Below, piece after piece: positions 123 through 59,479 of a stretch of DNA of 64,000 nucleotides. The notes under the pieces were generated by a model. That model made no database searches and had not been told where the DNA came from. It worked only from the letters and a program-made list of their open reading frames with translations. How positions within the stretch are numbered: position 1 is the stretch's first letter; each line of letters opens with the position of its first letter. Location of the stretch: contig JABLTG010000058.1 of NCBI GenBank assembly GCA_016618085.1, positions 37,578 through 101,577 of the forward strand, given 5' to 3'. This DNA comes from Neovahlkampfia damariscottae. Lineage: Eukaryota > Heterolobosea > Selenaionea > Neovahlkampfiida > Neovahlkampfiidae. Made by a program: the position numbers and the translations under genes.

Positions 123-127
123 ATTGG
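123..127 (+). promoter_or_regulatory. ATTGG box beside the start of the PDI-like gene
   Basis: The sequence TGATTGGTCA ends only a few bases before the ATG at 135, with seven bases between ATTGG and the start codon. This is the clearest example of an element that recurs, in either orientation, upstream of most genes here. It matches the core bound by NF-Y (CCAATCA/TGATTGG) in other eukaryotes. That it is the core promoter, and that transcripts begin within or just after it, is inference. Confidence 0.55.
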
Positions 128-134
128 TCAAAAA

Positions 135-1763
135 ATGTTATTCAACAAAACCGTTTTAGCCTTTGTTTTACTTTTCATTTTTTTTTCTTTTGTTCAGTCA
201 AAAAAGAGACCACAATTATTTGAACCAAAAAACTTGGATGAATTTGAAAAAGTCAAAACAAAAAAATTAGTAGTTGTTGTTTTGTAAGTCAAATCTTGTT
301 TTTTAACATTTTTTCAAGACCACCTTTATCAATTAATCAACAATTAAAAACAGGTCTTGAAAGACTTTTAATGTCTATTTCAATGAGAGTTGATGATGTA
401 ACTTCAGTTTCTGTAGATTTGAAAAAGATACCGAAATTTCTTCAAAAATATGAAAAATTAACATCAAGTTGGAATTTTTATAACTCAGAAATGAGGTTTT
501 ATTTCATTTTTTAATTTTTTTTTCAGTCCTTTGTTTTTAATTTTTCGTTATGGCATTGGTAAAATTTACACTGGTGCATATGATTATATAAGTTTTTTGA
601 AATATTTGAACAATCAAAGATATGCTAAAAGATTAAAAAATGAAAGTGATATTGAAAAATCTGATGTTTCAATTGTTGGTTATTTCAAAGATGACAAAAA
701 ATTGAAATTGTTTAAGCAATACTCTTATATATCTCAAGATGAAGCAAATTTTTATTATACTACAAATCCAGTTAAAAAGTAAGTTCATATCATTATTTTT
801 TATATTTCATTTTCAGCTTGGAAAATAATGATATTTTGTATAATGATGTTTTTGGAACAACAGAAATTTTGAAAAATGAAAAATTGAGTTATTCAAATTT
901 AATGAAATTTATGAACAAAAATGAAAATAAATTGATTAAAAAAATACATTCAATGAATTTAAATGGTAATATTTTGACTTTTTTTAATGATGATTTTTTG
1001 AATAGATTTTTATCAAAAAAATGATCATTTGATTATTGCATTTTCATCAAATTTTGAAGGTGAAAATGGAAATTTTTTGAAAGAATTTAATAAATTCTCA
1101 ACAAAATTATCTCAAGAAACCAATTGTAATGCAGAAAAAGCTGATACATGCTCAATAAACTCATCAGATGAAAAAATAGGATTTGGTTACTCCACAGGAA
1201 AGGAAGTTTTAAATTTACTTCAAAGTGTTCAATTATCAGCATTTGACTTTCCTTCAATTCTTATTCTTTCAAAAAAAACACAAAAAAACATAATTGTTGA
1301 CAAATCAAAATTTGACATTTTTTCATCAGAAAGTATTGACAAATTTTGGCAAGAATTCAAATCAGGAAATGTAAAATCATTCTTGAAAAGTGAAGAAGAA
1401 CCAGAAAACAATGATAAATCACACTTGAAAACAATCACTTTGAATAACTTTGAAAGAATTGTACATTCAAATAAAAAAAGTACAATGGTTTATTTCTGGA
1501 GAAATATGTGTCCTCATTGTACTGCATTATCACCAATTTATGAACAATTATCAAAAGATTTTCAAAATTCAAATGAAATTCAATTAGGAAAAATGAATGT
1601 TGAAAAAAATGCTCTTCCAACCTATGTCAAAGTTGATTATTTACCAACACTTTTATTCTTCCCAAATTGTAACGAAAAAGAAAAAGAAAAATATTTAGAA
1701 TATAGAGGTGAAAGAAATTTCATTGACATCAGGAATTTTATGATTAAAAATAAATGCCAATAA
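135..1763 (+). CDS. Protein disulfide isomerase-like secretory protein
   Basis: Five exons: 135-283, 319-495, 527-778, 817-965, 1006-1763; introns of 31-40 nt; 494 residues. Residues 1-22 form a signal peptide. The first thioredoxin-like domain keeps the fold (a FRYG strand followed by YTGAYDY) but has no CxxC. The last domain has the redox motif CPHC at about 411-414 and a following cis-proline (YLPT). Expected role: oxidising or isomerising disulfides in the ER, with only the C-terminal domain redox active. No KDEL-type tail is present; the protein ends KCQ. The intron at 966-1005 is inferred: it joins two frames that otherwise appear shifted. The TAA lies inside AATAAA. Confidence 0.8.
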
Positions 1764-1837
1764 AAACCATGCGCCAATTTTATCCAATCATATTTTAGTT
1801 TCCAATTTTTCCAACAAATCGACGAAAGTAACAAAAC

Positions 1838-2430
1838 ATGAAGTTGAACAGGATGAAAAAAGAATTAAAAATTTTGAATGATTCACCACCACCAGGCATT
1901 TCTTGTTGGCTCAAAGACGAAGATAAACTGGATGCTCTTGAAGCAACAATAAAAGGACCAAAAAACTCACCTTATGAAAATGGAACTTTTCATCTAACTG
2001 TAAATATACCAGAAAGATATCCAATTGAACCACCTGTAGTTAGATTCATAACTGAAATCTATCACCCAAATGCAAATAACAAGTTGTTTTTTTTAACCTT
2101 TTCTTTTTAGATTGATAATGCAGGAAGAATCTGTTTAGATCTTTTAAATTCACCACCAAAAGGAAATTGGAAACCAATTATAAATATTTCAACTCTTTTA
2201 ACTTCCATTCAACTTTTAATGTCTGAACCAAATGCAGATGATGGTTTAATGGGAGATATTGTAAGATTAAATAAAATTAATTTTAGACACAACAATTTAA
2301 AGAAAATAAATCTGAATTTCTAAAAGTTGCAAAAAAAATGACTGAAAAACATGCAATGAAAGAAAAATCAAAAAAAAGAGTTTTAGAAGAAAAAGAAAAC
2401 TCCGAAGAAAAGAAAATAAAAATTCTTTAA
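1838..2430 (+). CDS. Ubiquitin-conjugating enzyme, UBE2T-like
   Basis: Exons 1838-2071, 2111-2260, 2287-2430; 175 residues. The N-terminus (PPPGISCW), the HPN motif, the GRICLDLL segment with catalytic Cys86, and the PPKGNW and LLMSEPN stretches all match the UBE2T subfamily, the E2 that monoubiquitinates FANCD2/FANCI in Fanconi anaemia repair; Cys86 is also the human position. The lysine-rich tail is shorter than in animals. The first intron (2072-2110) must start with GC for HPN to join IDNAGR in frame; the nearest GT breaks the frame. The second intron is only 26 nt. The stop codon overlaps that of the convergent CSN7 gene. Confidence 0.88.
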
Positions 2431-3211
2431 AATTTATTTTTTTTTCCTTTATGTGAACCACCATCACCTCCAGCTTCAATTATTTCTTTCATATTCTTTT
2501 TTAATTCTTCAACTTTTTTTTCGTACTCTGAATTTGATTTTTTGGCTTCATCAAATTTTTTTTGAGCTTTTGTTGAGTTATCTTCCATATTTTTTTGAAT
2601 ATCTTTACTATGATCCATCCATTTTTTAAGTGTTCCAATTAATGAATCAATATCTTCAATACGAACATCTCTTCCAACTGTTTCAAAAATTTCAACACAT
2701 TTTCCTTTTTGATCAAGTTTTCCTTTACAAATATCAGCATAAAAACAGTCAATCAATAAATCTTCAAGATTACGAACATTATCAATGTCCAAAGCTTTTA
2801 AAAGTAAATTGTAAGATAAAACCTATGAGAGTTTTTTTGAAATGAGTTTTATATTTGTCTTACTCTGTGGGAAGAAGCTAAAGAAACAACTGAAAGTTGT
2901 TTAAGTTTATAAAGTTGTTTTTCATTCAAGTCAACATAATTTTCTTTGTTTTTTTTATAATCTGAATATGTTCCATAACAAAATAATGATAAAGTTTCAA
3001 AATCTTTTTTAGTTTCAGTTAAGTCTTTGAGCTATTTTTTATTTAATTCTAATTTTCAAAAACTTACTGCTAGAATTGAAGGAGTATTTATAAGCTCTGA
3101 AAAGACGAAACAATTTGATGAAGAAGTTGCTTGTGAAATTACAGAAGCAGCTTGTTTTCCTTTAGCTGATTTTGCTAAAACAACAAATTGATAAATTGCT
3201 TGATTGGACAT
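2427..3211 (-). CDS. COP9 signalosome subunit 7 (PCI domain)
   Basis: Three exons (3211-3068, 3031-2864, 2822-2427), 235 residues. It reads through a PCI/winged-helix domain. Family landmarks are the Phe-rich segment CFVFSEL, YGTYSDY, the SLASSHR stretch and NLEDLLIDCFYAD, then GKLDQKG and GRDVR, followed by a lysine-rich coiled-coil tail. CSN7 is a scaffold subunit of the complex that removes NEDD8 from cullins. The codons after ATG contain CCAAT, so the promoter-like element overlaps the 5' end of the ORF; another copy lies about 46 nt upstream. Its TAA overlaps the UBE2T stop. Confidence 0.85.
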
Positions 3212-3305
3212 GTTTTCTTCTTCTCAAAAACTTGCTCCTAAAATAAAAGTGATATGATTGGTCTATTTCTCAAAAATTAAATTAACAAATTCCTCCAGAA
3301 AATTT

Positions 3306-6669: not shown

Positions 6670-7595
6670 TTTTTCGTTGAAGAAGTTGAAAAATTTGATC
6701 CAATCAAATTATTTCACTTCCTTTTATTTCATTGGTCAAATGGATTAATGCAAAGCTGGTATCAAATTCTGATACTTTAAACTGAAACAAACCTAAACAA
6801 TGAATCAAGTGAGACAAATTGGAGGGAAATACATCTAAAATGTATGATCATCGATCTTGGATGGAACCTATTCTGCTGGCATTGATATTTTGAAGACTGA
6901 GACTTCCTTTGGAAATAAAAGATGAAGGCATGAGGAAAATTTATTCAAAATGAATTTGATTATCAGAAAATTTTGAGTTCCAATGTAAAAAAATATTTTG
7001 AAATATCCATCAGAATCATCATGATTTTCCAAGACTTCACATCAATAGTCGAGATGTGCTTTCTCTGGAAATGTCTTCATGAAACGTCACCTTATTAAAA
7101 TTAATGATTGAATAGCAGCCATTTCATCAAATTGACTGACAAACTAAATTGAAGATATTGAAAATAGGAGACCGATTTATTTTTTGAAGAAAGATGTTTG
7201 AATTTTTAATTGTAAACACTTAATTTTACTATCAATTGAATGAACGACTACCCCGTTTGAATTATTATAAAATTGACACTGGAATATTTTCCTTTCAGAA
7301 ATGAAGAAAATTGAAGAACCTTTTTCATCATGAAATTCATCCACAAATTATTTTTTCCTAATACAATTTTCACAATCAATCCATTAGTTCCATCATATGC
7401 TGCAACATTTTGATCGCAATCTTGTGGTTTTGCTGCTGAAATGACATACTATATATCCAATGCTTGGTTCTAAGGTTTTGTCCTCAAAAGTTGAAAGAGT
7501 TCTGATTGTAGTTTACTCAATTTGTTCACTTGAATTTACGAGTACTAACTCATTAAGCTGTGCAAAAGAGTTTATCTTTTTGATTGGTCAAAAAA
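6670..7595 (+). other. Gene-poor stretch, probably decayed coding sequence
   Basis: No intact gene is visible. Short coding-like stretches occur on both strands but are broken by stops. On the minus strand, about 7250-7445 is open for 64 codons without a usable ATG; on the plus strand, about 7330-7470 starts with ATG and is cut by an in-frame TGA. I recognise no family. The first 30 bases or so (ATTGG-type box at 6700-6704) are probably the promoter of the CHD gene. An ATTGGTCA at about 7583 lies next to the kinase stop codon. Confidence 0.35.
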
Positions 7596-8615
7596 TCACA
7601 TGTTTATTATTTGGTCGACTTTTGAAGGAGCAATTGTAAAGATATTAAAGTTCTTCTTTACGTTTGATTTCACAAATGGATGGTTCAAAAGCTCATTTGC
7701 AGATTTTCTTTCACTTGGATCAAATTTCAGACAACCATCCAAAAAATCTATAAACTCATCAGACCACGCACATGGATCTAATTTTCCTCATTAAAAAAAT
7801 GATAAATTTACTTTTCAATGTTGGAGGTGGATTTTTTGAAACATGTTTTAAAATGGCATTTGTAGATAATTCCATGTAAGGTGGTTCTCCATCAGTTAAT
7901 TCTAATAAAGTTATTCCCAAAGCCCAAATATCAACTTTTTCATTAAATTGTTTGCCAGCACATAATTCTGGTGACATCCAATATGGAGAACCACTAGAAT
8001 AAATTTAATTTGAAGACAATTCTTACCAAAGATATTTCTCTTCAATATTATTGAATTTACATGAAAATCCAAAATCACATAATTTCAATTCACCCTTTGA
8101 GTCTGATAGATTTAATATAAGTTTATTTGATTACTCAATAATATGTTATCTGATTTGATATCTCGGTGTATAATTTCATTTTCATGTAAATATTTCAATG
8201 CTTTCAAAATTTGATAAGAAATTTTTGAAATTTCAACTTCATCAAATGTTTTTTTTTTAAAAATTAAATCAGTGAGTTTTCCATAATTCATATATTCAGT
8301 GACAATCCAAACGTTCTTTTCTGTGGTATAACTTTCGAAAAATGATACAATTCCAGGGTTAGAGTGATTTGAAAGAACAGAAATTTCGTTGTAATAAAAA
8401 TTTAGATATTTCTCATCTTTTGAAATAATTTTTACAGCAAACTTTTTTTTTAATTTTTTGTGAAGAACTAAATATACTTTTGCCGTTGCTCCTTCATCTA
8501 ATTCTACAATTTTGTCGTATATTTCGTATGGGTCTTTGCTTGGTGTTACTTTTTCTTGAATTAGGTCTTGTTTTAAAATTAAATTCTTCTTCACAGAGAC
8601 CATTAATTTTCTCAT
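7596..8615 (-). CDS. STE20-like serine/threonine protein kinase
   Basis: Exons 8615-8135, 8102-8027, 7993-7812, 7777-7596; 306 residues, almost only a kinase domain. Visible motifs: ATP-lysine strand FAVKI, catalytic loop HRDIKSDN, DFG, an activation segment ending GSPYWMSPE, and DIWALG. The splice joins restore DNILLNSKGELKL and CGSPYWMSPE, which supports them. The glycine-rich loop is degenerate: in LDEGATAKV only the middle glycine of GxGxxG is kept. HRDIKSDN and the APE-like region point to the STE20/PAK or CDC15 groups. The last intron has a possible alternative acceptor nine bases earlier in transcription, which would add three residues. TGA stop. Confidence 0.85.
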
Positions 8616-8856
8616 GTTGGTTATTATTCAGTTTTTCAAAATTGAAGCGTTATTTATAATCCAAATTTCAGTTGAACTTCGTTTGAGCATCCAACGAAAA
8701 AACCAACATTTCTGGTGAATGATTGGCGGAAATTTTCAAAGGGAAAAAGAGAAATTTAAAAGAGAATATACTTATAATCAAGAATAAAATTGATCATTGC
8801 AAAAAAATTTAATTCATGTTCAATGTCATTGGTCAATCATACTCCGAAAATTTTCA

Positions 8857-9938: not shown

Positions 9939-10052
9939 AAACTGATAAATTCAATTATGAATAAATTTTTAAAAATTGAAAAGAAACATTCTTCAAAATC
10001 AACCTATTCATTCAAAATAATCATGATTGATAATTCATTCCACCTTCGCTCA

Positions 10053-10357: not shown

Positions 10358-10434
10358 GCTTTCTTTCTCAATTTTTTAAAAACAGAAATTTTAACCAATA
10401 AAATTGTTGCTGCATCAAATCGAACAATAACAAC

Positions 10435-11537: not shown

Positions 11538-11577
11538 AATTTTATCAACAGTTTTTTTTTTTCAATTTCATTGGTTG

Positions 11578-17599: not shown

Positions 17600-17632
17600 A
17601 AGATTTATTTTCAAAATTAGTTCTTCGTTAAT

Positions 17633-20538: not shown

Positions 20539-20723
20539 CGACAAAGAAACAAAACGTTTAAATTAAAAAAGTGAGATAATTGGTTTATTTTACGGTCAAA
20601 AAAAAATACAATTAAAATCAAGAATTTCAGATGTATGGAGTTTGTGGAATTATTGTACTTAAAATGGAAAATGGTGTTTGATTGGATTATTCTGGCTTCA
20701 GCAGAAAAACGGTTTAACAACAA

Positions 20724-22313: not shown

Positions 22314-22734
22314 TTAACGAATTGGAAGGATGTTAAACCGAAACGAATTTCGTTGGTCAATAAATTTGTCCAATTTGAGCGAATAAAAAGTCTAAATTGG
22401 CAGTTTATAGAACTGTGTGTTTTTATGTTGTTATGGAACTTTTTTTTTTGAAATAATTTAATCTCAAAGCCAAGTTGTAGAATTTTTTTTTTTTTTCATT
22501 TCTTCAAAGCCTTCTTCTTTCTTGAGCTATTCTTGTGTGGAAGTTCTCGTCTTGATAACCATGGAGTTACGGTGAATGGTAGTTAGGAGTTGACAAAACA
22601 TTCTGCATCTGGAGAAATAAATGAATTGTCCAATGGTACTGGTTTTTAAACAAAACACCATTTTAGGAGAAATTCTGAATAAAATAAAATTGAAATTGAA
22701 ATGAACAATTGAGTTGGAGAACTAATTTATTAAT
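22314..22734. other. Intergenic region with a broken coding-like fragment
   Basis: No intact gene. On the minus strand, from about 22641 down to a TGA at 22496, one frame reads as plausible protein (ending in a lysine-rich KKKALKK) but is broken by an in-frame TAA. A different minus-strand frame gives a 44-codon ATG ORF. I cannot decide between a pseudogene, a tiny gene and chance. The segment at 22314-22400 carries the promoter of the phosphate carrier. Confidence 0.3.
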
Positions 22735-24540: not shown

Positions 24541-24639
24541 CTCTTCTCACCTCAACGAACAAAATAAGAATGAAATTGGATGATTGGATATTGGCAGATT
24601 AAGAAGTCAGAATTTCTAAATTCAGCAAAAGAAATTTTT

Positions 24640-25779
24640 TCATTCATTTTTATAATTTTTCATTAAATTTTCAAATGTTGAATATCTTAGTTGTTTAACT
24701 ATTATTTTGATATCAAAATCTTTTCTCAATTGAAATAGAATATCTTGCAAGTATTTTGGATAGTTCGCCTTTTTAATATCAAGGGCAAAATCTTTCTGAG
24801 ATAGTAGTAGGGGGCTTTCATGAACACCTTTGTGTTTTTCGTAAATCTTCAGAATTGAGGCACAAATGATGTCAAATCTCACCATTAATTCATCATATTC
24901 CTTTTTGAATTTTGGGAAATAGACTAGAAATTCAGATCCTTCATTTGTGTATAATATTTTTAGTAGTTGATTATTTTTTGAATTTTCATCATCAAACATC
25001 AAGTGACTCAATAGAACATATTGTGGTGATTTTATTTTCACACGATTGAAATTTTCATCGCAAACAACATAACCCTCACAGATTGTTGGATCCAATTTAC
25101 AAGCCATTTCTTTCAATTCATCTAATGATTTCACAGATATTTCTAATGGGATGATAGATTTCCAATTTAATTTCTTTACAACTTCAACAGGATCTAATTC
25201 TTCAAGTGTTGTTAAATCTCTTGCTCCTAACAGAATTAAATCTTCTTTTTTATGTTTAACCACAAGACCATGTCTATAAGTAATCATTTCAAAAACATAA
25301 CATAGATTTGTATCATTCGGTAAATCATATTTCAATGCATCAAAAATCTCCCAAAATAATTGACGAAATGGAATCACCTTTTCATTCTCATTAACAAAGC
25401 ACATGTGACTACTCCCATCACATCTACTTGTAGATCCTACATGCCACTTTTTATCATAAAAGTATAAAATTGCCATTGACCCATCATGTTTTTCATAAAT
25501 TTTTGATTTTTTTATGTCTATTTCTTTAACTTGTTTTTCACCAAAGTTGAAAAATTTATCAAATGGATAACTTATTATTTTAAAATCATTTTTTACATCC
25601 AAAACAATTCCTCTACATTCCTGGACAATTTCGTTTGAAAAATCGGATAAAGTTTGGTTGTATGAAAACTGAACTAAATTTGAATAATTTTCGTGTTTAT
25701 AAACATTCAACAAGAAAGTTTCCTTCAATTTTTCAACTCCATTTTTTTTCAAATAGTCCACTGTTTTAATGTTTTCCAT
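24640..25779 (-). CDS. T4 Rnl1-like RNA ligase
   Basis: 379 residues, one exon. The nucleotidyltransferase motif I is EKHDGS with the adenylation Lys97. Upstream, CRGIVLD and FFNFGE match the N-terminal segment of T4 Rnl1-type ligases, and downstream GSTSR, FEMI, EGYVV and RVKIKSPQYV give motifs III-V. It should seal 5'-phosphate/3'-hydroxyl RNA ends with ATP, for example in tRNA repair or splicing. Eukaryotic homologues of this phage-type ligase are patchy, which suggests transfer or loss. It shares a 36-nt divergent promoter with the PRCC-like gene; ATTGG ends nine bases before its ATG. Confidence 0.85.
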   Translation of the reverse strand: MENIKTVDYLKKNGVEKLKETFLLNVYKHENYSNLVQFSYNQTLSDFSNEIVQECRGIVLDVKNDFKIISYPFDKFFNFGEKQVKEIDIKKSKIYEKHDGSMAILYFYDKKWHVGSTSRCDGSSHMCFVNENEKVIPFRQLFWEIFDALKYDLPNDTNLCYVFEMITYRHGLVVKHKKEDLILLGARDLTTLEELDPVEVVKKLNWKSIIPLEISVKSLDELKEMACKLDPTICEGYVVCDENFNRVKIKSPQYVLLSHLMFDDENSKNNQLLKILYTNEGSEFLVYFPKFKKEYDELMVRFDIICASILKIYEKHKGVHESPLLLSQKDFALDIKKANYPKYLQDILFQLRKDFDIKIIVKQLRYSTFENLMKNYKNE

Positions 25780-25815
25780 TTTCACAAACCAATCAAAACT
25801 GCTATTGCTTCAATC
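25780..25815. promoter_or_regulatory. 36-bp bidirectional promoter with one CCAAT box
   Basis: The ATGs of the RNA ligase gene (minus, 25779) and PRCC-like gene (plus, 25816) are only 36 bases apart. The gap holds a single CCAATCA (CCAAT at 25789-25793), nine bases from one ATG and 22 from the other. Both transcripts must start here or inside each other's coding region. The bidirectional function is inferred from geometry. Confidence 0.6.
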
Positions 25816-28018: not shown

Positions 28019-28144
28019 TTTGTGAACCAATCAATTTGTGGGAAAGAAAATGAATATTTTTTTGAATATTGTGACTTTTTGAATTATTTAAATTGCACAT
28101 TTCAACTCCGATAAAAGTTGAATTGTCCAATGAAAAGATTCGTC

Positions 28145-29890: not shown

Positions 29891-30672
29891 TTAATCAAGT
29901 GAGATAACTCCTAAATTATGGAGAATATAAAAACAAATCGTTTCTTTTTCTTTAATCAATTCTTTGGATGTTATTAAATTCTCCAATGAAATAACTAACA
30001 AATCATTATGAATGGTTGATTTTGATGATAATGTGTGCAGTAAATCCAAATATCCATCAATACAAATTGAACTTTCGTTGAATAAAATTTTGAAATTTCT
30101 TACTGGTGAATGGATTCAATAAAAGAATTAATTAATGATTCCAAATAATTTTTAGATAATGTATTTGATATTTTTTCATCATAGTAACTTGAAGTATTCA
30201 ATAAAGCTAATGTATGTTTGATTAATTCATCAACCAATGAATTTTCCAAAATCATGACGAAAAAATCCAAATGATTGAGTATTTCTGTCAACCAAGGTTC
30301 TTTCTTTTCTTTAATTAATCTAATAGACAAAAATTTAATCATTTCTGACAATAATTCAATGTTTTCTAATTGTAAATTTTGAAAAAATAAATCTGTGTCA
30401 AAATCAAAACTGTGACTCAAGGAACAATTTGAAAGTACACCAAAATATATTTCTTTCAACCTATATGATGGTTTTTCTTTTCTTAATTCCATATTAATAA
30501 TCTCTATCAAGTGTAAATCGTTAACTAAAAAATTAACAAATTTTTTATCTGTGGTTATGTCCCATATAAAGCAACCTGAGTCTTTTTTTTCATCTTCAGA
30601 ATAGTTTCCTTTTAAAATTGAAACCATTTTTTCTATTAACTTCAGGTCAATTGTTGTTTCGTTTTGATTCAT
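29891..30672 (-). CDS. SAAL1-like armadillo-repeat protein
   Basis: Exons 30672-30104 and 30071-29891; 249 residues. The opening block (GCFIWDITTDKKFVNFLVNDL, then LKEIYFGVLSNCSL) matches the conserved start of SAAL1 proteins, predicted helical-repeat proteins of unclear function linked to proliferation in vertebrates. The rest is leucine-rich helices. The start is at 30672; an in-frame TTG upstream was rejected. TTGATTGG lies 14 bases before the ATG and is shared with the divergent gene. Confidence 0.65.
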
Positions 30673-30699
30673 CCAAATCGTAGTGGCCAATCAAATACA
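30673..30699. promoter_or_regulatory. 27-bp bidirectional promoter with one CCAAT box
   Basis: Only 27 bases separate the ATGs of the SAAL1-like gene (30672, minus) and the small secreted protein (30700, plus). The gap contains GGCCAATCA (CCAAT at 30687-30691), 14 bases from one start and 8 from the other. It is the shortest divergent gap in the window. Confidence 0.6.
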
Positions 30700-31095
30700 A
30701 TGAAGTTTTTATTTCTCTTGTTGATTTTTTCTTTGATATTCGTTTTAAATAGTAGTCCAAAGTATGGACGAAGTGAAATATATTTGACTGATAATGTTGA
30801 CGAAGTAGTGGTTGATGTTTATCTTATTCCGCCTGAAGCTGTTTTTGAAATCCAACAACAAGAACTAATGAAAGTTTCAACTATTAAAACTCTATGTGAA
30901 GAATTTCAAACAAAGACTTCAAAATTTCCAATTTTACTTTTTATTGATGAAAATGGATCAAGAAAAGTTTTGAATGAAAATTATTATACAGATGTATGTA
31001 CTTTAAAACTTGATAATAAACCTAAATTAATGGTACTAAAGGAACTAAATGTTCAAAATGTACTTCTAAGCAATGTATTTTTCAATTTTGAATAA
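30700..31095 (+). CDS. Small secreted protein of unknown function
   Basis: 131 residues with a clear signal peptide (about 1-18, MKFLFLLLIFSLIFVLNS). The mature part is acidic with two cysteines and strands such as FPILLFIDENG and PKLMVLKELN that recall thioredoxin-like beta strands, but no CxxC is present and I do not assign a family. The stop TAA lies in GAATAAAC, the usual gene end here, which argues that the gene really ends here and that the decayed DNA downstream is separate. Confidence 0.55.
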   Translation: MKFLFLLLIFSLIFVLNSSPKYGRSEIYLTDNVDEVVVDVYLIPPEAVFEIQQQELMKVSTIKTLCEEFQTKTSKFPILLFIDENGSRKVLNENYYTDVCTLKLDNKPKLMVLKELNVQNVLLSNVFFNFE

Positions 31096-31801: not shown

Positions 31802-33643
31802 ATGGTGATGATGGATGAAGATGAAAACTTAACTTTCAAAATAACAGATTTTTCAATGGAAAACAAAAAAACAATAGTAAAAAAAAATCAAAAACTAATT
31901 TACCCGAAGGCGTTTGACATCCAAATTCATCAAGGTGAAAGAAAATGGAAAATAAAAAGAAATTACAAACAACTTGAAAAACTTATACAGGAAGTAACCA
32001 TAACAAAAAAAAACTCACAAAAAAGCTGAAAAAAAATTTCGAAGTGAAACAAACATTTCCAAAGGATTTGTCAAAAATGGAAAAAACAAAAATTCAAGAA
32101 AAAATGAAAGAAATAGATGATTATTTTGAAGAAATGATCAAATCTAAACCAATTAAGGTAAATAATATAACAAGTCTTAATTTTGAAGAATTCTCAAACA
32201 CTGAATCATTTTTTAAGTTTGAATTATGAAAGTACAACGACAAAAAGTAAAGGATCAAGATTTTCATTATTCTCTTCAAATGTTGAATCATTCACAGCAC
32301 CTCCTAGTTTTCGATCAAGAAGTAGTTCAACCAGAAAAAGAGCATCTTCATTGACAGAAGATGAAATTGAATTTGATTCAGAAAAAATTAAAGAAAAAAT
32401 GAAAGAAGAAAAGAAAAATAAATCAGATGGTCAATTAAAAAAAATGCAACAAGAACAACAAGAAGATGAAGAAAAAGATGATTTAATTGAAGAAAAAAAT
32501 AAAATAATAGCTGAAACGATTGATATACCAAATTATGAAAAGTTTTCTTTAATTTATGAAAAATCATCAGGTAAAGAATTCTTAAAATTGTATACAAATT
32601 ATTCGAATGTATATTATTCAAATGAAGAAATTATAGGAGTTGTAGAATTTCATAACGAAAATGAATCATTTCCAAAAATAAAAATCCAATGTATAAAAGA
32701 AATTAATGCAACAAAAGATCCAAATCAATATATTTCAACAACAAAATATATTAATCATTTAATTACTTGTAAAGAATCACCTTGTTGGTTTAAAATCAAA
32801 ATACCAAAAAAAGTAACTTTTGGGAATTATGAATTTGAATCAGATACTTCAAATTCATTCTCTGTCAAAATTAATTATAAAATTAATATAAATATGTTGA
32901 CAAAAAAAAATATCAAAAATTTATATGGTTTGATTGGTTTTTCAACAAAAAATCCAATCACTATTTATCCAAAACCATTATTGGAACTATCTAAAAAGAA
33001 AGAAAATACAATGATTGAAGCAAGATGCGAAGAAGAAAAATTTAAAAATAATCAATTAAAAATCAAACTTCATAACAAAATTTTATTTTGTGGGGACAAA
33101 GGAAAAATAGCAATTTATTGGAAAAATAATCAAAAAGAAAATTCAATTCATTCCTTTAATATTTTTTTAATTCCTCAAATTTTAATTAAATTTCGAGCAA
33201 AAGAATCAAAAGGAAATTCAAATAATCAGTTTGATAGTATTATGAAATCACCTAGAATTGAAGGAATTAATCAAAAATTATCTTTAAAGAAAATACATCT
33301 GGGATCATTGGATGTTTTGAATTCAAGTTTTCAATTACAATCAAAATCATTTGCATTTGAAGTTCCATCAAATATATTCCCAAATGAAGATTTCCATGAA
33401 GATTTTTCAGTGAACTACAAACTGATAATTACAGCATCAACTTCAACAGAACAAAATGAAAAAGATCCAAAAATTGAAATTCCAGTGATGATATCTTCAC
33501 CTTTACCAAAGAATTTTGAAGAAAGATTTTCAAATATTCAAAACGAATCAACATCAAATTTTGGAGTTGTTGAAAATGAAAATGTATTTTTTAGTTTTGA
33601 AAGTACTTCTGGAATTGGTTCTTTATCAGGTTTCAAACTTTAA
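31802..33643 (+). CDS. PX domain-arrestin-like fusion protein
   Basis: Exons 31802-31993, 32026-32157, 32189-33643; 592 residues. An N-terminal PX domain (FDIQIHQGERKWKIKRNYKQLEKL, then TFPKDL, then a C-terminal helix ending FLSLNY after the last splice) should bind phosphoinositides. A Ser/Arg-rich linker (about 115-200) and an arrestin fold follow (VYYSNEEIIGVVEFHN, CWFKIKIPKK, CGDKGKIAIYW, IEIPVMISSPLP). A role in cargo sorting or receptor down-regulation at endosomes is likely. The start ATG is the first Met in the PX frame; two ATTGGTTGG repeats lie 40-70 bases upstream. The stop overlaps that of the convergent SRA gene. Confidence 0.75.
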
Positions 33644-34784
33644 GGCCAATAAAATTCATTAATATTCAATAATTCATCAATGGTTGTTTCTTCTAATTCT
33701 TCTTTTCTATTCTCTTCTTTAACAATTTCTTCAAGTGAATTCAATTTTTTAGTTGCTGATCTAATTCTAATTTCATTAATTTCATTTCTTTGTTTTGCAA
33801 TGGTTAACTCTTTGTTTGTTAAAACATTACTCAAAATATCAATTCTTTCATTAATCAAATATTTTTCAAAGTCATCATTAATTTCAAAATTCAATGAATT
33901 TTCTTGTTTCATTGAACAAATAGTTTCAATTTTTTTTAAACAAATTATATTATCAATATCAGAATTAAGTCTTCTTTTTACTTTTACACCTAAAGGAGCC
34001 AATGAATATTGATCAATCCATGGATTTGATTCAATATCAATAATATCATTTCTCCTTTTTAAATTAACAACTTTCATTGAATTTCCTTCTTCTTCAATAT
34101 CATCTTCTTCTTCTTCTTTTACTTTTCTTCTTTTATATTTTGGTATCATTTCATCATCATTTATTTTTTTATTTTTTTTTAGAGTTACATTCAGATATAT
34201 ATCTCTTGTTATTTTTTTTTTTGGATTTTGTGAAGGTCTCCAATTTAACTGTTTTGGAATTTCATTTTTTGTATCTGCTTGAATCAATTTAAATTTATAC
34301 ACAAAAGGACCATTTCCATTTTGTCTTTCTTTCCAATAATTTGTTACCCAGTATAATCCATCATAACGATATCCTCTTTTGGGTGCATATGGTGATTCTA
34401 AATTCTCTCCACGTATTAATCGAACAGGTATCTTTTTTTTTTTATTTTTTTTTTTTTTTTACTCTTTTTTCTCTGTTTATAGATAAACTTTGATTATATC
34501 TTGTTAGTATTTGATCTTTAGTACTTGAACCTCCTTGTCCCATATAAATCATTATATTTCCAAAATCACCTCCTGAATCATCATATCCACCACCAGAATT
34601 TGCTACAACTGAAGTTGCAGGTATTTCACTCATTCCAGCTTGAAATATATTAATTCTTTTTTTTGAATTTACCAATTCCTGCTACTGTTGGAGCATGAAG
34701 TTTTGCAGCAGCGACATCTTTTCTTTTTTCAAAATGTGAAAACAATGGAGAAGTTGCCACATGACCATAGATTTTATCATTCAT
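33640..34784 (-). CDS. SRA-YDG domain protein
   Basis: Exons 34784-34673, 34638-34463, 34431-33640; 359 residues. Residues from about 10 to 160 form an SRA domain: HAPTVAGI, SGGYDDSGGDFGN, YMGQGG, DQILTRYNQSL, IPVRLIRG, YAPKRGYRYDGLYWV and NYWKE all match the UHRF1/SUVH family, which binds methylated or hemimethylated cytosine in DNA. No RING, PHD or SET domain follows; instead there is a Lys/Arg/Glu-rich tail. The protein is nuclear by inference. Only 43 bases separate its ATG from the upstream gene's stop, and that gap has no ATTGG box. Confidence 0.88.
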
Positions 34785-34827
34785 TATTTTTGATTTTTTC
34801 CATTCTATTTAAAATAATTTATAACAT

Positions 34828-35244
34828 TTAAATTTTACGGTTCAATTCTCCGAAATATTTTAAATCTTCTTTAGTGATTTTTGATATTTCTTGATCATTA
34901 TATTTGTTTTTATTTTCTTCATTTTCTTCATTTCCTTCATTTTCTTCTTCTTCTTTTTCTTCTTCTGTTGAGTCTGGATCTATTTCAATGAAATTACTTT
35001 CGATTTTTAGAAAGTCTTTATGTATTTCAACTTCTGGTATTTCTTCTTCAAAATCTACTTCTTTCAATAATTCATCTAATTTTGTTTTTTTTGTAGGTGT
35101 TTCATTTTCATCCTTTGATTTTTTCCTTTTCAGAGAAGTTTCAAGAATTTCTTGACTTTGCTCATCAACATCAATCTCTATATTTGAATAATGTTGATTC
35201 AAAGAATCTAAACTATCAAAAGCGATTAATTCATCCTCGTCCAT
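34828..35244 (-). CDS. Acidic, probably nuclear protein of unknown function
   Basis: 138 residues from ATG 35244; in-frame codons upstream encode a hydrophobic stretch but do not start with ATG. Composition: Asp/Glu-rich with two basic clusters (LKRKKSK and TKKTK) that could be nuclear localisation signals, and a run of Glu/Asn near 105-125. No family recognised. CCAATCA lies about 30 bases upstream. Confidence 0.5.
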   Translation of the reverse strand: MDEDELIAFDSLDSLNQHYSNIEIDVDEQSQEILETSLKRKKSKDENETPTKKTKLDELLKEVDFEEEIPEVEIHKDFLKIESNFIEIDPDSTEEEKEEEENEGNEENEENKNKYNDQEISKITKEDLKYFGELNRKI

Positions 35245-35352: not shown

Positions 35353-36367
<1,015 letters not shown>

Positions 36368-38735: not shown

Positions 38736-38870
38736 CGATTTTGATTGAGTGGAATATCCAATCAAATCATATTGGAAAGCTTCACAAATTCTTTCAATAT
38801 TTTTTCATTAAATCGTGAATTATCAGCTTCATTTAGTATCATATTTTTATCCAATCATTTAAATTCATAA

Positions 38871-41159: not shown

Positions 41160-41298
41160 TGTGTGATTTGATTGGTTTTCCAAACTTGGCGTTAAATTTC
41201 CGAGAATCATTTTTCCAAACAAATCTCAAAATTTATTTGCTTTTATTTCACAACAAAATGAATTAAATATCCCACCAAATTCCAACCAATCAGAAAAA

Positions 41299-43090: not shown

Positions 43091-43215
43091 AATTAATAAT
43101 AATAAATTTTATTTATTTTTTTTTTCTCCTCTACCTAGAAGGTATTTTATTGGTGGGATTGTTTAACCAATCAGCCAAACTTTACTACCACGAATCAACA
43201 AGAGCGTTTTCAACC

Positions 43216-44618: not shown

Positions 44619-44890
44619 AATAAAAATTAAGTTATTGACAAAGTGAACTGAGTCACTTTGTTATTGACATGGAGGAGTTTTTTTTAATTCCAGATTATTG
44701 ACATGTATGCTTTTAATCAAGATACTTTGTGATTGGCCGTTTATCCGTTCAAAATTGAAAAACATGAGATGTTTATTGGTCCATGTCACCTATAAATAGA
44801 TCTTCAACTTCAATTTGCAATTACAACTTAAAAAAAACTCAGTGAACATCAAACAAAGTACTCACTGATAAATTTCAAAAACTGAAGAAA
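44619..44890 (+). promoter_or_regulatory. TATA-containing promoter and leader
   Basis: This gap contains the only clear TATA box placed before a gene here, TATAAATAG at 44791-44799, about 92 bases before the ATG at 44891, preceded by ATTGG at 44775-44779. The arrangement (CCAAT-type box, then TATA, then a leader of perhaps 60 bases) differs from the start-proximal boxes elsewhere and suggests a regulated gene. This is inferred from sequence only. Confidence 0.45.
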
Positions 44891-45259
44891 ATGATTACCC
44901 ACCTCTACAACCCAAACGCATTTCCAAACACTTGTACAAATTTCAAACAAAATGAAAATCAAACCTTCAAAGCCAATTCTCAAACAACTTCTTCTTTCCA
45001 AATACCTGAAGAAGTTGATGAAATGAATGCAGAGGGTTTTGTAAATAATGTAAATATCGAAACTCAACAAAAAGTCGAACAATTTTCCTTCGATTTTTGT
45101 TCAAAAGATGTACCTGAAAAAAAGATGGATGTGGAAGGATTAATTAAAGAAAAATCTCAAGGATTAATTCAAGAAATACTTTCCTCTGCTCTTGAAAAAT
45201 CAAAATCTTTGAAACAAAAAAAGATGAAAAAATTAAGAAAAAACAATTTTGACAAATAG
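44891..45259 (+). CDS. Small protein with basic C-terminal helix, TATA-driven
   Basis: 122 residues, no intron. The N-terminal 70 residues are polar and rich in Asn, Gln and Thr; then comes GLIQEILSSALEKSKSLK followed by a Lys/Arg tail, similar to the end of the gene at 44394. The two could be divergent tandem copies. A nuclear role is possible from the basic tail; function unknown. The stop is TAG with AATAAAA just after it. Confidence 0.5.
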   Translation: MITHLYNPNAFPNTCTNFKQNENQTFKANSQTTSSFQIPEEVDEMNAEGFVNNVNIETQQKVEQFSFDFCSKDVPEKKMDVEGLIKEKSQGLIQEILSSALEKSKSLKQKKMKKLRKNNFDK

Positions 45260-45414
45260 AATAAAATTTTCTTCCCAAACCCAAAAATACCATTTTTCTT
45301 ACTGACCAAATTGATGCAGGATACACTTGATCGAATTTGGTGAAAATAAAATAATCACTTGATTTAGAAAAGAGATACTGATTGGTGAATCCCATCAAAA
45401 CTACAACCTAAAAA

Positions 45415-45842: not shown

Positions 45843-45868
45843 AATTGTTATTTTGAAAAACAAATTTT

Positions 45869-55069: not shown

Positions 55070-55251
55070 TAGAAACCAATTCTATTGGTCAACTCCAAAA
55101 CTGGAAGATTTTAAAATAAAACAAAAATAAAATATCCAAAATTTTTCGAAAAACTAATTTTTTTTATGTGGTGAAAAAAAAAATAAAATGAAAAAGAACT
55201 CATAATAAGCGAATTATAACTTTTAGAAAATTTTATTTCACATTTTGGAGA

Positions 55252-58200
55252 TTATTCAACAATTTCATCAACTCCAGTGATACTTCCAAGTTCTTCTTCA
55301 ATTTCATCAACCTCCTCTATTTTGTTCTGTGCACTATCATTCTTGATTAATGTTCTCGACTCAATGTCTTCACTCTTTGAAGCAAAAAGACCATCAAAAC
55401 AATTCAATAAACTTGCATGTTTGTCTAAAACTAAATTGCCCATGTCAGCTTTTTCTTGGTCAGTTTTTGGAATTGCATTTTTACATGATGTGCATAATTT
55501 AACTTCTATCACCAACAATTTTGCAAGGATTTGGCAGACTCCTGAAAAAAATGACAATAAACACCAAGTAATAAAATAATCATATCCTTCATATTTCACA
55601 CCTGAAATGAATAATCCTCCAAAAATCATTCCAATAAACCATAAAATCAATGAAGCAATCCATAAGCAATAACCAACATAAAATTGAATGTTTTGACAAA
55701 AGTTAAAGCATTCTTTGATATTACATTTGAAAATGTCACGATGATTCTTGATCAAAACAATTAAAGTTTCAATTAATGTTGTAAGTCTTAAAATTGAAAA
55801 AATAATATTGGAAAAGTGAACAGAAAAAAATTCAAAGGTTCCAAAACTGATCAATGAAAAGTAATTAATCAATATGATGAATATCAAGTAACCAAAGAAA
55901 AATGGGAAAAATAATATGATCTTCTTTTTTGTCAATCTATATTTAGTTGCGATGATAATAATATAAAGGGCAACAACTATCAAAAAAATAATTAAAAGTA
56001 CTGTTCCTTGCATATAAACGACTGAAGGCAAAATAAAAATTGAAAATAAAACAAAAATGAACTCCAGTTGAATTTTGAATTTTCCTAAATCTTGTTGAAT
56101 CATTTCAACAAAATATGGTTTTTTTGTTGTTTCATTAATTTTTAAAATTTTGTTTTTGATTTTAATAGATTTGATTAAAATATAAATTCCATTTAAAAAG
56201 AAGATTGCAATAACAGCTAAAATGAAAAATATGTACGAAAGCAATTGATAGGTGGAAAAGTAATCATAACAGATCCATCCGGATGAATTTCCAGTAATCA
56301 TGTTGCTAACATCCACAATAGTTCTTGCATCAACAGACCAATTTGACAAATCAGTGTCAATTTGTTCTGCAATTCCTGCCAATAAAATGTTTGATTGACC
56401 AAAATCGATAATGTGAAATATTGGGAACGTTAATGACAGCAATGACATAAATGCATAAAATAAGAATATCCATGATGGAAATTCAAATTTTGGTTCTTTC
56501 ATGTCAGTTATAGAATTGAATTGAATTGATGTTTCATTGGTTGTTGAATTGCAATAAAAAATTTGTGAATCAGCGTTGACTATCAGTCCAATGTTATTGT
56601 CACACATTTTTCTATAATTTTGATGTAAACAAGTTCTTTCATAAATCTTGGCATCAACCCAAATTTGAGGAATACATTGCATTCTTGGTAATAAGCAAGT
56701 ACTTTCGTCCCAAGATAAAGTTTCAATTAAATTTGTCTTTGGATTGAAATATAATTTGGTTTTTGAAAATTTTATATTGGCATTTTTTTGAAGTGCAAAT
56801 GATACATTTGATGTTTTTTTAAAATTTATGGTTGGTGGAAAAACTTCATTTAATTGTTGTTCCACTTGAATATGAGATGTTCCTTCTTCAACTGAAATAG
56901 TAGTTTTCAATTTATGATTCCAAAATAATTGATGTTTTTCATTAAATTTAATGGATTGGTCAAAAATGGAAAATTTGTAATCTTCTGTAAATGTTGTAGT
57001 TTTTGAAACTTCATAAAATATTTCTGAGTTATTTGAAGCATCAATGAGATTAATTTTTGGAACTAAACTTGTCGTTTCAATATTACAAATCAAAGTTGAA
57101 ATTGAATCAGATTTTAATTTCATCAAAGGAGAAATGGTGTCATTCAAGCAATTGATGGAAAATTTTGTTTGATCTGAAGCTAAATAACTTTCAATTCTCA
57201 ATTCACTTTGTTCACAGAAATCAGTTGAAATTTGAATTGATTTTCCTTCTGAAACTGTTAAATATAATCTGTCCAATAGTATTAATTCAGTTGCCGTTAT
57301 TTTAACGGATAAACATTTTTTGTCATCAGATAACACAATATTAGAATTTAAAATTTTCAAAAATCTAATATTTTCCATCCAGTCAATATTTTTAGTGAGA
57401 ACTGTTTTCTTTCCTAAAATTTCTACTTGTTGAATTTTTGTTGCAATGAATGAGCATTTTTCATTAACAGGAATTCCAAGATCAATAGCTTGTTGTTTGA
57501 ACCATTCTGATTTTGGTTTTACATCAAAGTCATTTTTTAAAATGCACCCTTGTTCAATGTTCAACAAATCAGTTTCTCCAAAGTTCAATTTTGTCACTGA
57601 ATTATTTCCAGCAACAAATAACATTCCATTTGACATTGAGATATCTTTTAATAAATCTGTTTTTGTTGAAACAAAAATAGCACCATTTGAAATATCATGA
57701 ATACTTGCCATTGATTGAGAGCCTGATTTAATAACAACCTCAGAACCATAAGGGGAATCATTCATTTCAATATCACATTTCCCATTATATTCAACTAAAA
57801 ACTCTCCAATTTGACAATCTCTACAATGAAATTGATCAATTTTAAATGAAGTTGCGTTGATATCCATCTGACAAAAATCAGAGTTTTGAAAGTGAACTTC
57901 AACAAGTCTTGAAACTGAAGAGTTTGTACTTTTGACATTAAAAATTTGATTCAAAATTTGAGGTGAATTATAATTTATCACCCAATCACTGACATCTCTC
58001 ATGTCATAGTTCAAGTTATCAATATTCATCCAATTGATATTAAATAAACCAATATCATCATCATGAATATAAATTGTGGTATTTTCCCATGTAATTTGTC
58101 TCAATACATCTTTTGAAAATGGTAAATATTTTTGAGAAAGTGATAAATCTAAAGACTCTAGTCTACTTTGAAATACAAAATTTGGAATTATTTTATCAAC

Positions 58201-59382
58201 TGCAGGACAAAGTTTTCCATTGAATTTTGAAGTCTTCCAAGATAAGACTGAATTCTCTAAACAGTTGAAATTCCAAGTCATATTATTCGTTGATAAATCT
58301 GATTTATAAAAAAAATTTACATCTTTTTCAAAAGAGTTAAAAATATTAACTTTATGTCCATTGAGTAAATTTATAGTAAAATCATCATTCACAAAAATTG
58401 ATGAATCTGATAGAAAAATTGATTTCCAAACATTCAAATCTTTGTATTCTAAATTTCCATTTTTCACAGTTAATATTTGAGTGTTGTTTTTTTTAGTAAT
58501 TTGTGAAGCCAAAATAAATGGTGTTTGAATGTCAATTTCTTTAATGAGATGTGTGTAAAGTGAGCAACCATTTAAAGCTTGATTTGTTGGAAACCCATAA
58601 TATTCCATTTGTGAAATGTACCAAGCGGAATGAGTTGGATTTGTTCTTTGTTGATTTGCAATCAAACAACCATCTAAATATGTCACTTTTTCATTGGCTG
58701 TTAAATTTACAACAATTTTTGTTGTGTCTCCAACAAAATGCATTGTTTTATCTTCATTGAATAATTTAGGATGTGGTGTAATTATGGCATTTGAAATTAA
58801 AATTGAACTCCAAATATCTTCTAAAAGAACTGTTGACTGTGAAGTTAAATCCATAACAGCACTGGTACCAATAGGTGTACCTTTTAAATCCATAATTGTT
58901 TTACTCTTAATATTAAATTTCCAATTCTGAACATTTGTTAAATATAATTCTAAAGTCGAAATTGAAACTTTCGATCTTCCTGGATCAGCAAATAACCAAT
59001 TTTCAAAATGATAAGGTAAATTTGTATTAACAGGAGGTGGAAATTCAGCATATATAGTACCGTTTGTGTTTGGATATGATTCAATTTTAATTTGGTTGGA
59101 CATTGTTAGATTTGGCAAAAAGAGATTCACATTCCAATTTGTAGTTTCTTCTGTTCCAACAAAAATGACAGCTGAACCTTTAGCAATTTCACCAACGGAA
59201 TACTCTTCATTTGAACCAAGAGAAACTCTGAATGTGAAACCTTCTCTTGTGTTATTTATCCATCTTACTCCATTTACAATAGTTATAAAATTTGTTTCAT
59301 CATTTTCTGTTGAAACTGAAGATTTTATGGAAACAAAAAAAATAAATAACAACAACAACTGCAAACAATTTTTCACTTCCAT
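55252..59382 (-). CDS. Large receptor-like membrane protein with about eight TM segments
   Basis: 1376 residues, one exon. The start at 59382 gives a proper signal peptide (MEVKNCLQLLLLFIFF); the longer in-frame ORF adds 13 residues and would put the ATTGG box inside the coding region. A 960-residue extracellular part of short strands and many N-glycosylation sites looks like a beta-helix. It is followed by WIFLFYAFMSLL and about seven more membrane segments to about residue 1290, then a CTSC motif and an acidic cytosolic tail. It may be a surface receptor or channel; no known family recognised. ATTGG lies 12 bases upstream. Confidence 0.7.
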   Translation of the reverse strand: MEVKNCLQLLLLFIFFVSIKSSVSTENDETNFITIVNGVRWINNTREGFTFRVSLGSNEEYSVGEIAKGSAVIFVGTEETTNWNVNLFLPNLTMSNQIKIESYPNTNGTIYAEFPPPVNTNLPYHFENWLFADPGRSKVSISTLELYLTNVQNWKFNIKSKTIMDLKGTPIGTSAVMDLTSQSTVLLEDIWSSILISNAIITPHPKLFNEDKTMHFVGDTTKIVVNLTANEKVTYLDGCLIANQQRTNPTHSAWYISQMEYYGFPTNQALNGCSLYTHLIKEIDIQTPFILASQITKKNNTQILTVKNGNLEYKDLNVWKSIFLSDSSIFVNDDFTINLLNGHKVNIFNSFEKDVNFFYKSDLSTNNMTWNFNCLENSVLSWKTSKFNGKLCPAVDKIIPNFVFQSRLESLDLSLSQKYLPFSKDVLRQITWENTTIYIHDDDIGLFNINWMNIDNLNYDMRDVSDWVINYNSPQILNQIFNVKSTNSSVSRLVEVHFQNSDFCQMDINATSFKIDQFHCRDCQIGEFLVEYNGKCDIEMNDSPYGSEVVIKSGSQSMASIHDISNGAIFVSTKTDLLKDISMSNGMLFVAGNNSVTKLNFGETDLLNIEQGCILKNDFDVKPKSEWFKQQAIDLGIPVNEKCSFIATKIQQVEILGKKTVLTKNIDWMENIRFLKILNSNIVLSDDKKCLSVKITATELILLDRLYLTVSEGKSIQISTDFCEQSELRIESYLASDQTKFSINCLNDTISPLMKLKSDSISTLICNIETTSLVPKINLIDASNNSEIFYEVSKTTTFTEDYKFSIFDQSIKFNEKHQLFWNHKLKTTISVEEGTSHIQVEQQLNEVFPPTINFKKTSNVSFALQKNANIKFSKTKLYFNPKTNLIETLSWDESTCLLPRMQCIPQIWVDAKIYERTCLHQNYRKMCDNNIGLIVNADSQIFYCNSTTNETSIQFNSITDMKEPKFEFPSWIFLFYAFMSLLSLTFPIFHIIDFGQSNILLAGIAEQIDTDLSNWSVDARTIVDVSNMITGNSSGWICYDYFSTYQLLSYIFFILAVIAIFFLNGIYILIKSIKIKNKILKINETTKKPYFVEMIQQDLGKFKIQLEFIFVLFSIFILPSVVYMQGTVLLIIFLIVVALYIIIIATKYRLTKKKIILFFPFFFGYLIFIILINYFSLISFGTFEFFSVHFSNIIFSILRLTTLIETLIVLIKNHRDIFKCNIKECFNFCQNIQFYVGYCLWIASLILWFIGMIFGGLFISGVKYEGYDYFITWCLLSFFSGVCQILAKLLVIEVKLCTSCKNAIPKTDQEKADMGNLVLDKHASLLNCFDGLFASKSEDIESRTLIKNDSAQNKIEEVDEIEEELGSITGVDEIVE

Positions 59383-59479
59383 ACAGCTTCTGAACCAATC
59401 AAATAACACCATGGTTTCCAAAAATAAAAATACATTATTTGAAAATCAAAAGAGAATTGTTTAATTATAAAAATATTTA

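What the first reader, a model, noticed from the sequence alone, without database searches (positions are those of the whole stretch)
123..59399. TGATTGG/CCAATCA box fixed next to start codons in either orientation
By eye, roughly 27 of 38 genes have ATTGG or CCAAT within about 50 nt of the chosen ATG, often 3-15 nt away: 3 nt for the GT49 gene, 7 for the PDI-like gene, 7 for the phosphate carrier, 8 for Rqc1 and for SLC35F5, 6 for the 3066-residue gene. The best copies read TTGATTGG. NF-Y normally binds this core 60-100 bp upstream of the transcription start. Here it would lie at or inside the start site, so it may act as an orientation-independent core promoter or initiator with ultra-short 5' UTRs. 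Some copies even overlap the first codons (CSN7).
Basis: partly seen in the sequence, partly recalled or inferred. Interest (0 to 1): 0.78.

Follow-up and report, generated by a model that had tools for sequence, protein, structure and literature searches.

The report
CCAAT boxes touching most start codons
In this stretch of a compact eukaryotic genome most genes carry the same short DNA box, CCAAT(CA), within a few dozen letters of the start codon and in either direction, which suggests a tiny, two-way promoter in place of the usual longer one.

Summary
On 36 curated gene starts, a CCAAT or ATTGG lies wholly within 50 nt upstream in 29 of 36 (shuffles: 4.9, SD 2.0). CCAAT/ATTGG is the most enriched 5-mer upstream of genes and CCAATCA the most enriched 7-mer. 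Automatic gene models that ignored the box give 20 of 36, against 17.5% of other ATGs. Orientation is even, 16 to 14. The surplus is not just compactness: random placement in the same intergenic regions gives 18.7, SD 2.3, against 29. Flanks fit the recalled NF-Y consensus: 15 of 44 boxes against 10 of 210 genic copies. Two divergent gene pairs have start codons only 27 and 36 bp apart with one shared box.

Most likely this is an NF-Y-type, orientation-independent promoter box in compact promoters with very short leaders. It is not an initiator in the strict sense, since spacing and orientation are free. Transcription starts are unmapped, and two indirect tests of a start at the box were inconclusive. 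No NF-Y domain turned up among the window's genes, no genome is held to search, and the organism is unidentified. New variant of a known kind.

The parts
121..127 (-). TGATTGG on plus; ATTGG ends 7 nt before ATG 135 (thioredoxin/PDI-like gene g01)
   Evidence: Pfam Thioredoxin
3201..3207 (-). CCAATCA (minus strand) inside codons 2-4 of CSN7-like gene g03, ATG 3211
   Evidence: CSN7a_helixI E 4e-4, below Pfam cut-off
3255..3261 (-). second CCAATCA of g03; CCAAT 45 nt upstream of ATG 3211
6700..6706 (+). CCAATCA, 30 nt upstream of SNF2-type gene g04, ATG 6669 on minus strand
   Evidence: Pfam
8828..8832 (-). ATTGG 24 nt upstream of ATG 8857 (Epimerase-family gene g06)
11570..11574 (-). ATTGG 3 nt upstream of ATG 11578 (GT49-like g08)
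   Evidence: Pfam Glyco_transf_49
20679..20685 (-). TGATTGG 38 nt upstream of ATG 20724 (g13)
22321..22325 (-). ATTGG on plus (CCAAT in gene sense) 7 nt upstream of ATG 22313, mitochondrial-carrier gene g15
   Evidence: Pfam Mito_carr
24575..24594 (.). three successive CCAAT boxes (gene sense) 34-49 nt upstream of ATG 24540 (g16)
25789..25795 (+). single CCAATCA between divergent ATGs 25779 (minus, RNA ligase-like g17) and 25816 (plus, g18); 36 bp between the ATGs
   Evidence: Pfam RNA_lig_T4_1
28027..28033 (+). CCAATCA 8 nt upstream of ATG 28018 (SLC35F-like g19, minus strand)
30687..30693 (+). single CCAATCA between divergent ATGs 30672 (minus, g22) and 30700 (plus, signal-peptide-like g23); 27 bp between the ATGs (72 bp if g22 starts at 30627, the automatic choice)
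36081..36087 (-). TGATTGG 40 nt upstream of polyubiquitin ATG 36042 (minus strand)
38758..38764 (+). CCAATCA 22 nt upstream of ATG 38735 (FG-GAP protein g27, minus strand)
38851..38857 (+). separate CCAATCA; CCAAT 15 nt upstream of ATG 38871 (PEN-2 gene g28), divergent partner of g27
41169..41175 (-). TGATTGG on plus (CCAATCA in gene sense), CCAAT 11 nt upstream of ATG 41159 (RhoGAP gene g29, minus strand)
41286..41292 (+). separate CCAATCA, CCAAT 8 nt upstream of ATG 41299 (TCF25/Rqc1 g30), divergent partner of g29
43167..43173 (+). CCAATCA; CCAAT 44 nt upstream of ATG 43216 (CDK-like kinase g31)
45379..45385 (-). TGATTGG 29 nt upstream of ATG 45415 (g34)
55076..55088 (.). inverted pair CCAATtctATTGG, 6 and 14 nt upstream of ATG 55069 (3066-aa signal-peptide-like gene g35, minus strand)
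59395..59401 (+). CCAATCA on plus (TGATTGG in gene sense) 12 nt upstream of ATG 59382 (g36, minus strand)

Best explanation
The box is a general promoter element of this genome: a binding site for an NF-Y-type (CCAAT-binding histone-fold) complex, used in either orientation. It clears the short gap between genes and recruits the transcription machinery within a few tens of bp, so that transcription starts next to the box and messages carry leaders of a few to about 40 nt. One box can serve two divergent genes. Shown: enrichment, position, symmetry, flank consensus, and lack of a general TATA box. Inferred: NF-Y as the binder, opening of chromatin, sharing of one box by two genes, and the place of the transcription start.
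For: Box within 50 nt in 29 of 36 genes against 4.9 by shuffling. Top-ranked 5-mer and 7-mer upstream of genes. Orientation 16 to 14. NF-Y-like flanks: RRCCAAT(C/G)(A/G) in 15 of 44 against 10 of 210 genic copies, P = 4e-7; CCAATCA in 20 of 44 against 17 of 210. Closer to starts than random placement in the same regions (29 of 36 against 18.7, SD 2.3; 0 of 20,000 placements reach it). One box between divergent ATGs 27 and 36 bp apart; in three wider divergent pairs (gaps 185, 135, 139 bp) each gene has its own box 8-40 nt from its ATG. TATAAA in sense upstream of only 4 of 36. No ATG in 682 positions between box and start in 30 genes. Weak: 12 genes with a box within 15 nt have 3 ATGs in 336 positions 18-45 nt upstream, outside the box, while 17 genes with a box at 22-45 nt have none in 277 positions inside it (too few to count as proof).
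Against: No RNA data. Permuting box distances among genes shows no significant link of ATG avoidance to the box (P = 0.115; 0.56 for all 34 genes with a box within 120 nt), and none for the base-composition change at the box (P = 0.40 and 0.12). Two genes have no box within 120 nt and five none within 100. Of seven divergent pairs, two fit less well: g05 has its nearest box 106 nt away, and g20 has one overlapping its ATG and otherwise one at 98 nt. Density is also raised at 100-149 nt. The median nearest distance over all regions is not significantly below random placement (29.5 against 39.1 nt, P = 0.13). In human cells NF-Y sites are depleted near the start site and can inhibit initiation depending on position (PMC11269187, passages), so a box touching the start is not how known NF-Y works. 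One window of one unidentified organism; starts curated by eye.
Confidence: 0.6

Rival explanations
1. An ordinary proximal CCAAT box, squeezed by genome compaction. NF-Y binds as elsewhere, but many starts of transcription lie upstream of or around the box, or inside the neighbouring gene, and closeness to the ATG is only a by-product of gaps of about 100 bp.
For: Gaps are short: 16 of 29 start-bearing regions are under 150 bp, one of them cut by the window end. Random placement already puts 18.7 of 36 starts within reach. ATG avoidance is not clearly tied to the box. Oomycetes carry CCAAT boxes with equal orientation, most within 150 nt of the start codon (PMC3599244, passages).
Against: 29 of 36 exceeds every one of 20,000 random placements, and in the 23 regions of 90 bp or more it is 23 of 28 against 12.8. 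In three wide divergent gaps there are two boxes or more, each start with one near it. In Phytophthora the box sits a median of 83 nt upstream of the initiator, which cannot fit boxes 3-15 nt from the ATG.
Confidence: 0.25
2. A core promoter element bound by a different, lineage-specific factor (for example Myb- or homeodomain-like), with CCAAT a coincidence, comparable to the Inr and M5 elements of Trichomonas.
For: The 7-mer CCAATCA and further A/T preferences around it go beyond the pentamer. Close-to-ATG core elements exist in Trichomonas (PMC7370421, passages; the type of factor that binds them is recalled).
Against: The flank preferences are those recalled for NF-Y. NF-Y occurs in protists such as Entamoeba (PMC6581852, passages). 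Core elements of that kind have one orientation (recalled); this one is even.
Confidence: 0.12
3. An RNA-level leader or translation signal next to the ATG.
For: Very close to the ATG in 12 of 36 genes (wholly within 20 nt).
Against: Equal use of both orientations and single boxes between divergent genes point to double-stranded DNA; spacing varies from 3 to 45 nt in 29 genes.
Confidence: 0.03

Closest known systems
NF-Y / CCAAT box (HAP2/3/5, CBF)
   Same: CCAAT core with purines before and C/G, A/G after (consensus recalled); either orientation; general promoters
   Different: In mouse cells NF-Y sites lie a median of 94 bp upstream of the transcription start (PMC6624317, passages); in human cells such sites are depleted near the start (PMC11269187, passages). 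Here many lie 3-45 nt from the start codon.
CCAAT motif of Phytophthora promoters
   Same: Equal orientation, A+T-rich rather than GC-rich flank, linked to steadier expression (PMC3599244, passages)
   Different: Median 83 nt upstream of a separate initiator where both occur; 1953 hits in a genome of 17,797 gene models
Entamoeba NF-Y / CCAAT
   Same: Protist NF-Y binding CCAAT shown by gel shift (PMC6581852, passages)
   Different: Spread over 500 nt upstream with no preferred position; 354 of 900 cyst-specific genes
Start-codon-proximal core motifs: Spironucleus C-rich motif, microsporidian CCC motif, Trichomonas Inr/M5
   Same: Short motif near the start codon; Spironucleus motif around 10 bp upstream (PMC3916229), microsporidian CCC upstream of 977 genes in T. 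hominis (PMC3486916), Trichomonas Inr/M5 with short leaders (PMC7370421); passages only
   Different: Other sequences; Trichomonas elements set the start site in about 90% of genes and have one orientation (recalled); the Spironucleus motif is in 16.7% of genes

Membership tests
NF-Y CCAAT box | CCAAT pentamer enriched in promoters | tested here: met
   15.9 per kb in the 100 nt upstream of starts against 3.7 in genes; top 5-mer
NF-Y CCAAT box | flanks RR before and (C/G)(A/G) after (consensus recalled, not from a call) | tested here: met
   15 of 44 against 10 of 210 genic copies, P = 4e-7; most of the 44 still miss at least one flank position
NF-Y CCAAT box | either orientation | tested here: met
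   16 CCAAT to 14 ATTGG among the nearest boxes of 30 genes
NF-Y CCAAT box | 60-100 bp upstream of the transcription start | tested here: not met
   In 29 genes the nearest box is 3-45 nt from the ATG, so it cannot lie 60 bp or more upstream of a start site that precedes the ATG. Rests on the start codons being right; transcription starts are not mapped, and some genes have further boxes higher up
NF-Y CCAAT box | NF-YA, NF-YB and NF-YC genes and binding | not testable with these tools
   no genome held for the window; no NF-Y domain among the Pfam hits of 36 window gene pieces, which says nothing about the rest of the genome; no binding data
Initiator (Inr) element | one orientation and fixed spacing over the start site | tested here: not met
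   16 to 14 orientation; spacing 3-45 nt in 29 genes
TATA-type core promoter | TATA box in sense at a set distance upstream | tested here: not met
   TATAAA in sense within 100 nt of 4 of 36 starts; both strands 2.2 per kb upstream against 2.0 in other intergenic DNA and 1.5 in genes

The most novel reading that the evidence does not exclude
In this lineage the NF-Y box itself is the core promoter: a bidirectional element that sets transcription starts within about 10-30 bp on either side, without TATA or initiator, so that a whole promoter for two genes fits into 27-36 bp and messages are almost leaderless.
Probability: 0.3. Interest if true: 0.8.

Novelty: new variant of a known kind. Interest (0 to 1): 0.58.

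Why it matters
NF-Y is known as an upstream factor that keeps promoters open; in human cells it can inhibit initiation depending on where it sits relative to the start (PMC11269187, passages). A genome in which its box touches the start codon of most genes would show that a conserved upstream factor can become the core promoter, and would offer a natural test of how little DNA a two-way eukaryotic promoter needs.

Tried and rejected
Chance or AT-rich background: rejected (shuffles, k-mer ranking, 3' flanks, random placement). Over-spliced gene models: my first two gene finders drifted to 737 and 324 introns and were dropped for a stricter one and forced-start models. Several forced models are imperfect (for example g02, g19, g22, g23, g28, g29, g36 are over-spliced or cut short), but their starts were kept; ten gene ends were set by hand. 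Transcription start at the box by ATG avoidance: inconclusive. By change of base composition at the box: not significant. Avoidance of boxes in the first 100 nt of genes: 4 observed against 7.3 shuffled, P = 0.14, not significant. TATA or an Entamoeba-like initiator: not general (TATAAA in 4 and AAAATTCA in 0 of 36 upstream stretches). RNA families at gathering score and tRNAs (bacterial-code ARAGORN) in the window: none.

Relatives: searches of viral contigs gave one distant hit each for polyubiquitin and SNF2 and none for TCF25 and the kinase. A scan of genome contigs with polyubiquitin gave 79 loci in bacterial and archaeal records, some perhaps stray eukaryotic contigs. Of all 81 fetched loci, the 18 below 42% GC were listed and carried 0 to 0.81 CCAATCA/TGATTGG per kb (the window has 45 in 64 kb). 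None was shown to be a relative, and their gene starts were not examined. An Anaeramoeba origin was considered: A. ignava is 80.65% A+T (PMC11550330, passages) against 71.4% here; not supported, organism left open.
Full report
What the window is. A 64-kb piece of a eukaryotic nuclear genome, 28.6% GC, read with the standard code, with genes packed at short gaps. Of the 30 introns in the strict automatic models 26 are 29-40 nt long. No whole genome is held for it. Pfam names among the gene pieces include Thioredoxin, UQ_con, SNF2-rel_dom, Pkinase, Glyco_transf_49, AAA_33/PNK3P, Peptidase_S10, RhoGEF, Mito_carr, RNA_lig_T4_1, SAD_SRA, FG-GAP, PEN-2, RhoGAP, Tcf25 and ubiquitin. The organism was not identified.

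The observation. I curated 36 start codons. A CCAAT or ATTGG lies wholly within 50 nt upstream of 29 of 36 and within 100 nt of 31 of 36. Dinucleotide shuffles of the same 100-nt stretches give 4.9 (SD 2.0, maximum 12 in 1000 runs) and 10.0 (SD 2.7, maximum 17). In the 100 nt upstream of starts the pentamer has a density of 15.9 per kb, against 4.6 in other intergenic DNA and 3.7 in genes; CCAATCA/TGATTGG has 7.4, 2.3 and 0.30. In a ranking of the strand-merged k-mers that occur there, CCAAT/ATTGG comes first of 381 5-mers and CCAATCA first of 1493 7-mers. The 3' flanks that are not also upstream of a start hold 2 in 1339 positions.

Bias checks. My starts were chosen by hand with the boxes in view. 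Automatic models that ignored the box give 20 of 36 starts with a box within 50 nt. Of the 15 automatic starts that agree with mine 14 have a box; of the 21 that disagree, which I take for internal exons or late ATGs, 6 do. Among 2530 other ATGs, 17.5% have one. ATG ORFs of 150 aa or more give 11 of 28. Since gaps are short, I also placed the 60 observed boxes at random within their own 29 start-bearing regions: 18.7 of 36 starts (SD 2.3) then have a box within 45 nt, against 29 observed, never reached in 20,000 runs; for the 23 regions of 90 bp or more, 12.8 against 23 of 28. The median nearest distance alone is not significantly shorter over all regions (29.5 against 39.1 nt, P = 0.13) but is for the larger regions (32.0 against 51.4, P = 0.026).

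Anatomy. The nearest box is CCAAT in 16 genes and ATTGG in 14, read in gene sense (30 genes with a box within 80 nt). Edge-to-ATG distances are 3-15 nt in 12 genes, 22-45 in 17 and 68 in one. Density is highest below 50 nt (14-28 per kb), about 10 per kb at 50-99, 13 per kb at 100-149 and 3 per kb at 150-249. Seven gene pairs are divergent. Two have ATGs only 36 bp (25779/25816) and 27 bp (30672/30700) apart with one CCAATCA between. The first pair of starts was also chosen by the automatic models; for the second, those models put the minus-strand start at 30627, which would widen the gap to 72 bp, while the ORF list has 30672. In three wider pairs (20538/20724, 38735/38871, 41159/41299) each gene has its own box 8-40 nt from its ATG. 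The other two fit less well: 8615/8857 has boxes 106 and 24 nt away, and 28018/28130 has one at 8 nt from the first start, 98 from the second, plus one overlapping the second ATG. Starts at 30700 and 55069 are backed by signal-peptide-like beginnings, read by eye.

Who binds it. The flanks of the upstream boxes differ from those of genic CCAAT: two purines before in 22 of 44 against 51 of 210, C after in 20 of 44 against 30 of 210, A or G next in 35 of 44 against 95 of 210; the whole NF-Y consensus in 15 of 44 against 10 of 210. The NF-Y consensus is recalled. An initiator-type element is unlikely because orientation and spacing are free. TATAAA occurs in sense upstream of 4 of 36 starts.

Where transcription starts. 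For boxes 3-15 nt before the ATG the start site must lie in the few bases after the box, inside it, or upstream of it; none of these is the known NF-Y place. Between box and start there is no ATG in 682 positions over 30 genes, while the 0-20 nt above the box hold 8 in 511. Genes with a close box have 3 ATGs in 336 positions at 18-45 nt, genes with a farther box 0 in 277 between 18 nt and the box. Permuting distances among genes shows that the absence could come from ATG avoidance near starts in general (P = 0.115; 0.56 if the four genes with far boxes, which hold five leader ATGs, are included). A base-composition switch at the box is not significant (P = 0.40 and 0.12). So a start at the box is plausible and unproven.

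Comparison with print. NF-Y sites lie a median of 94 bp upstream of the start in mouse cells (PMC6624317). [quoted passage not shown] Phytophthora CCAAT motifs are orientation-free but a median of 83 nt upstream of the initiator (PMC3599244). Entamoeba CCAAT motifs show no preferred position (PMC6581852). Start-codon-proximal motifs of other sequence exist in Spironucleus (PMC3916229), microsporidia (PMC3486916) and Trichomonas (PMC7370421). All of these were read as passages only. My searches (two of them returned nothing) listed no paper that I recognised, from titles and abstract starts of the rows shown, as describing CCAAT boxes abutting most start codons; most subscription papers are not in that library.

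Verdict. The best reading is an NF-Y-type two-way promoter box in extremely compact promoters (0.6). The bolder reading, that the box is the core promoter, is open (0.3).

Noticed in passing
stop codons, e.g. 9938, 11537, 43090, 44248, 45842: In 16 of 35 genes with a recognised stop codon, AATAAA spans the stop (xAA-TAA-A), so a poly(A) signal may overlap the stop codon (no shuffle control was run). Similar overlaps are known in Trichomonas (recalled).
   Followed up: partly
gene pairs g02/g03 (about 2427), g13/g14 (about 20963), g24/g25 (about 33640): Convergent gene models overlap by 4 nt at their stop codons; the other convergent gaps are 6 to 136 nt.
   Followed up: no
44730-44800: The gene at 44891 has a different promoter layout: two ATTGG boxes, then TATAAATAG at about 44791, some 90 nt before the ATG.
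   Followed up: no
24640-25779: RNA ligase of the T4 Rnl1 type (RNA_lig_T4_1) sharing its 36-bp promoter gap with g18.
   Followed up: no
33640-35244: Protein with an SAD/SRA domain, a type that can read methylated DNA (recalled).
   Followed up: no
59480-64000: Long array of cysteine-rich, EGF-like repeats running off the window end; seen by eye only.
   Followed up: no
6670-7758: A 1089-bp gap with six boxes (two close to g04) and no convincing gene; perhaps a decayed gene on the minus strand near 7250-7450, by eye.
   Followed up: no
upstream stretches, e.g. of g14, g15, g16, g32: CAACGA words are also enriched upstream of starts (6 against 0.5 expected); CCAACGA might stand in for CCAAT in g14, which lacks a box.
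   Followed up: no
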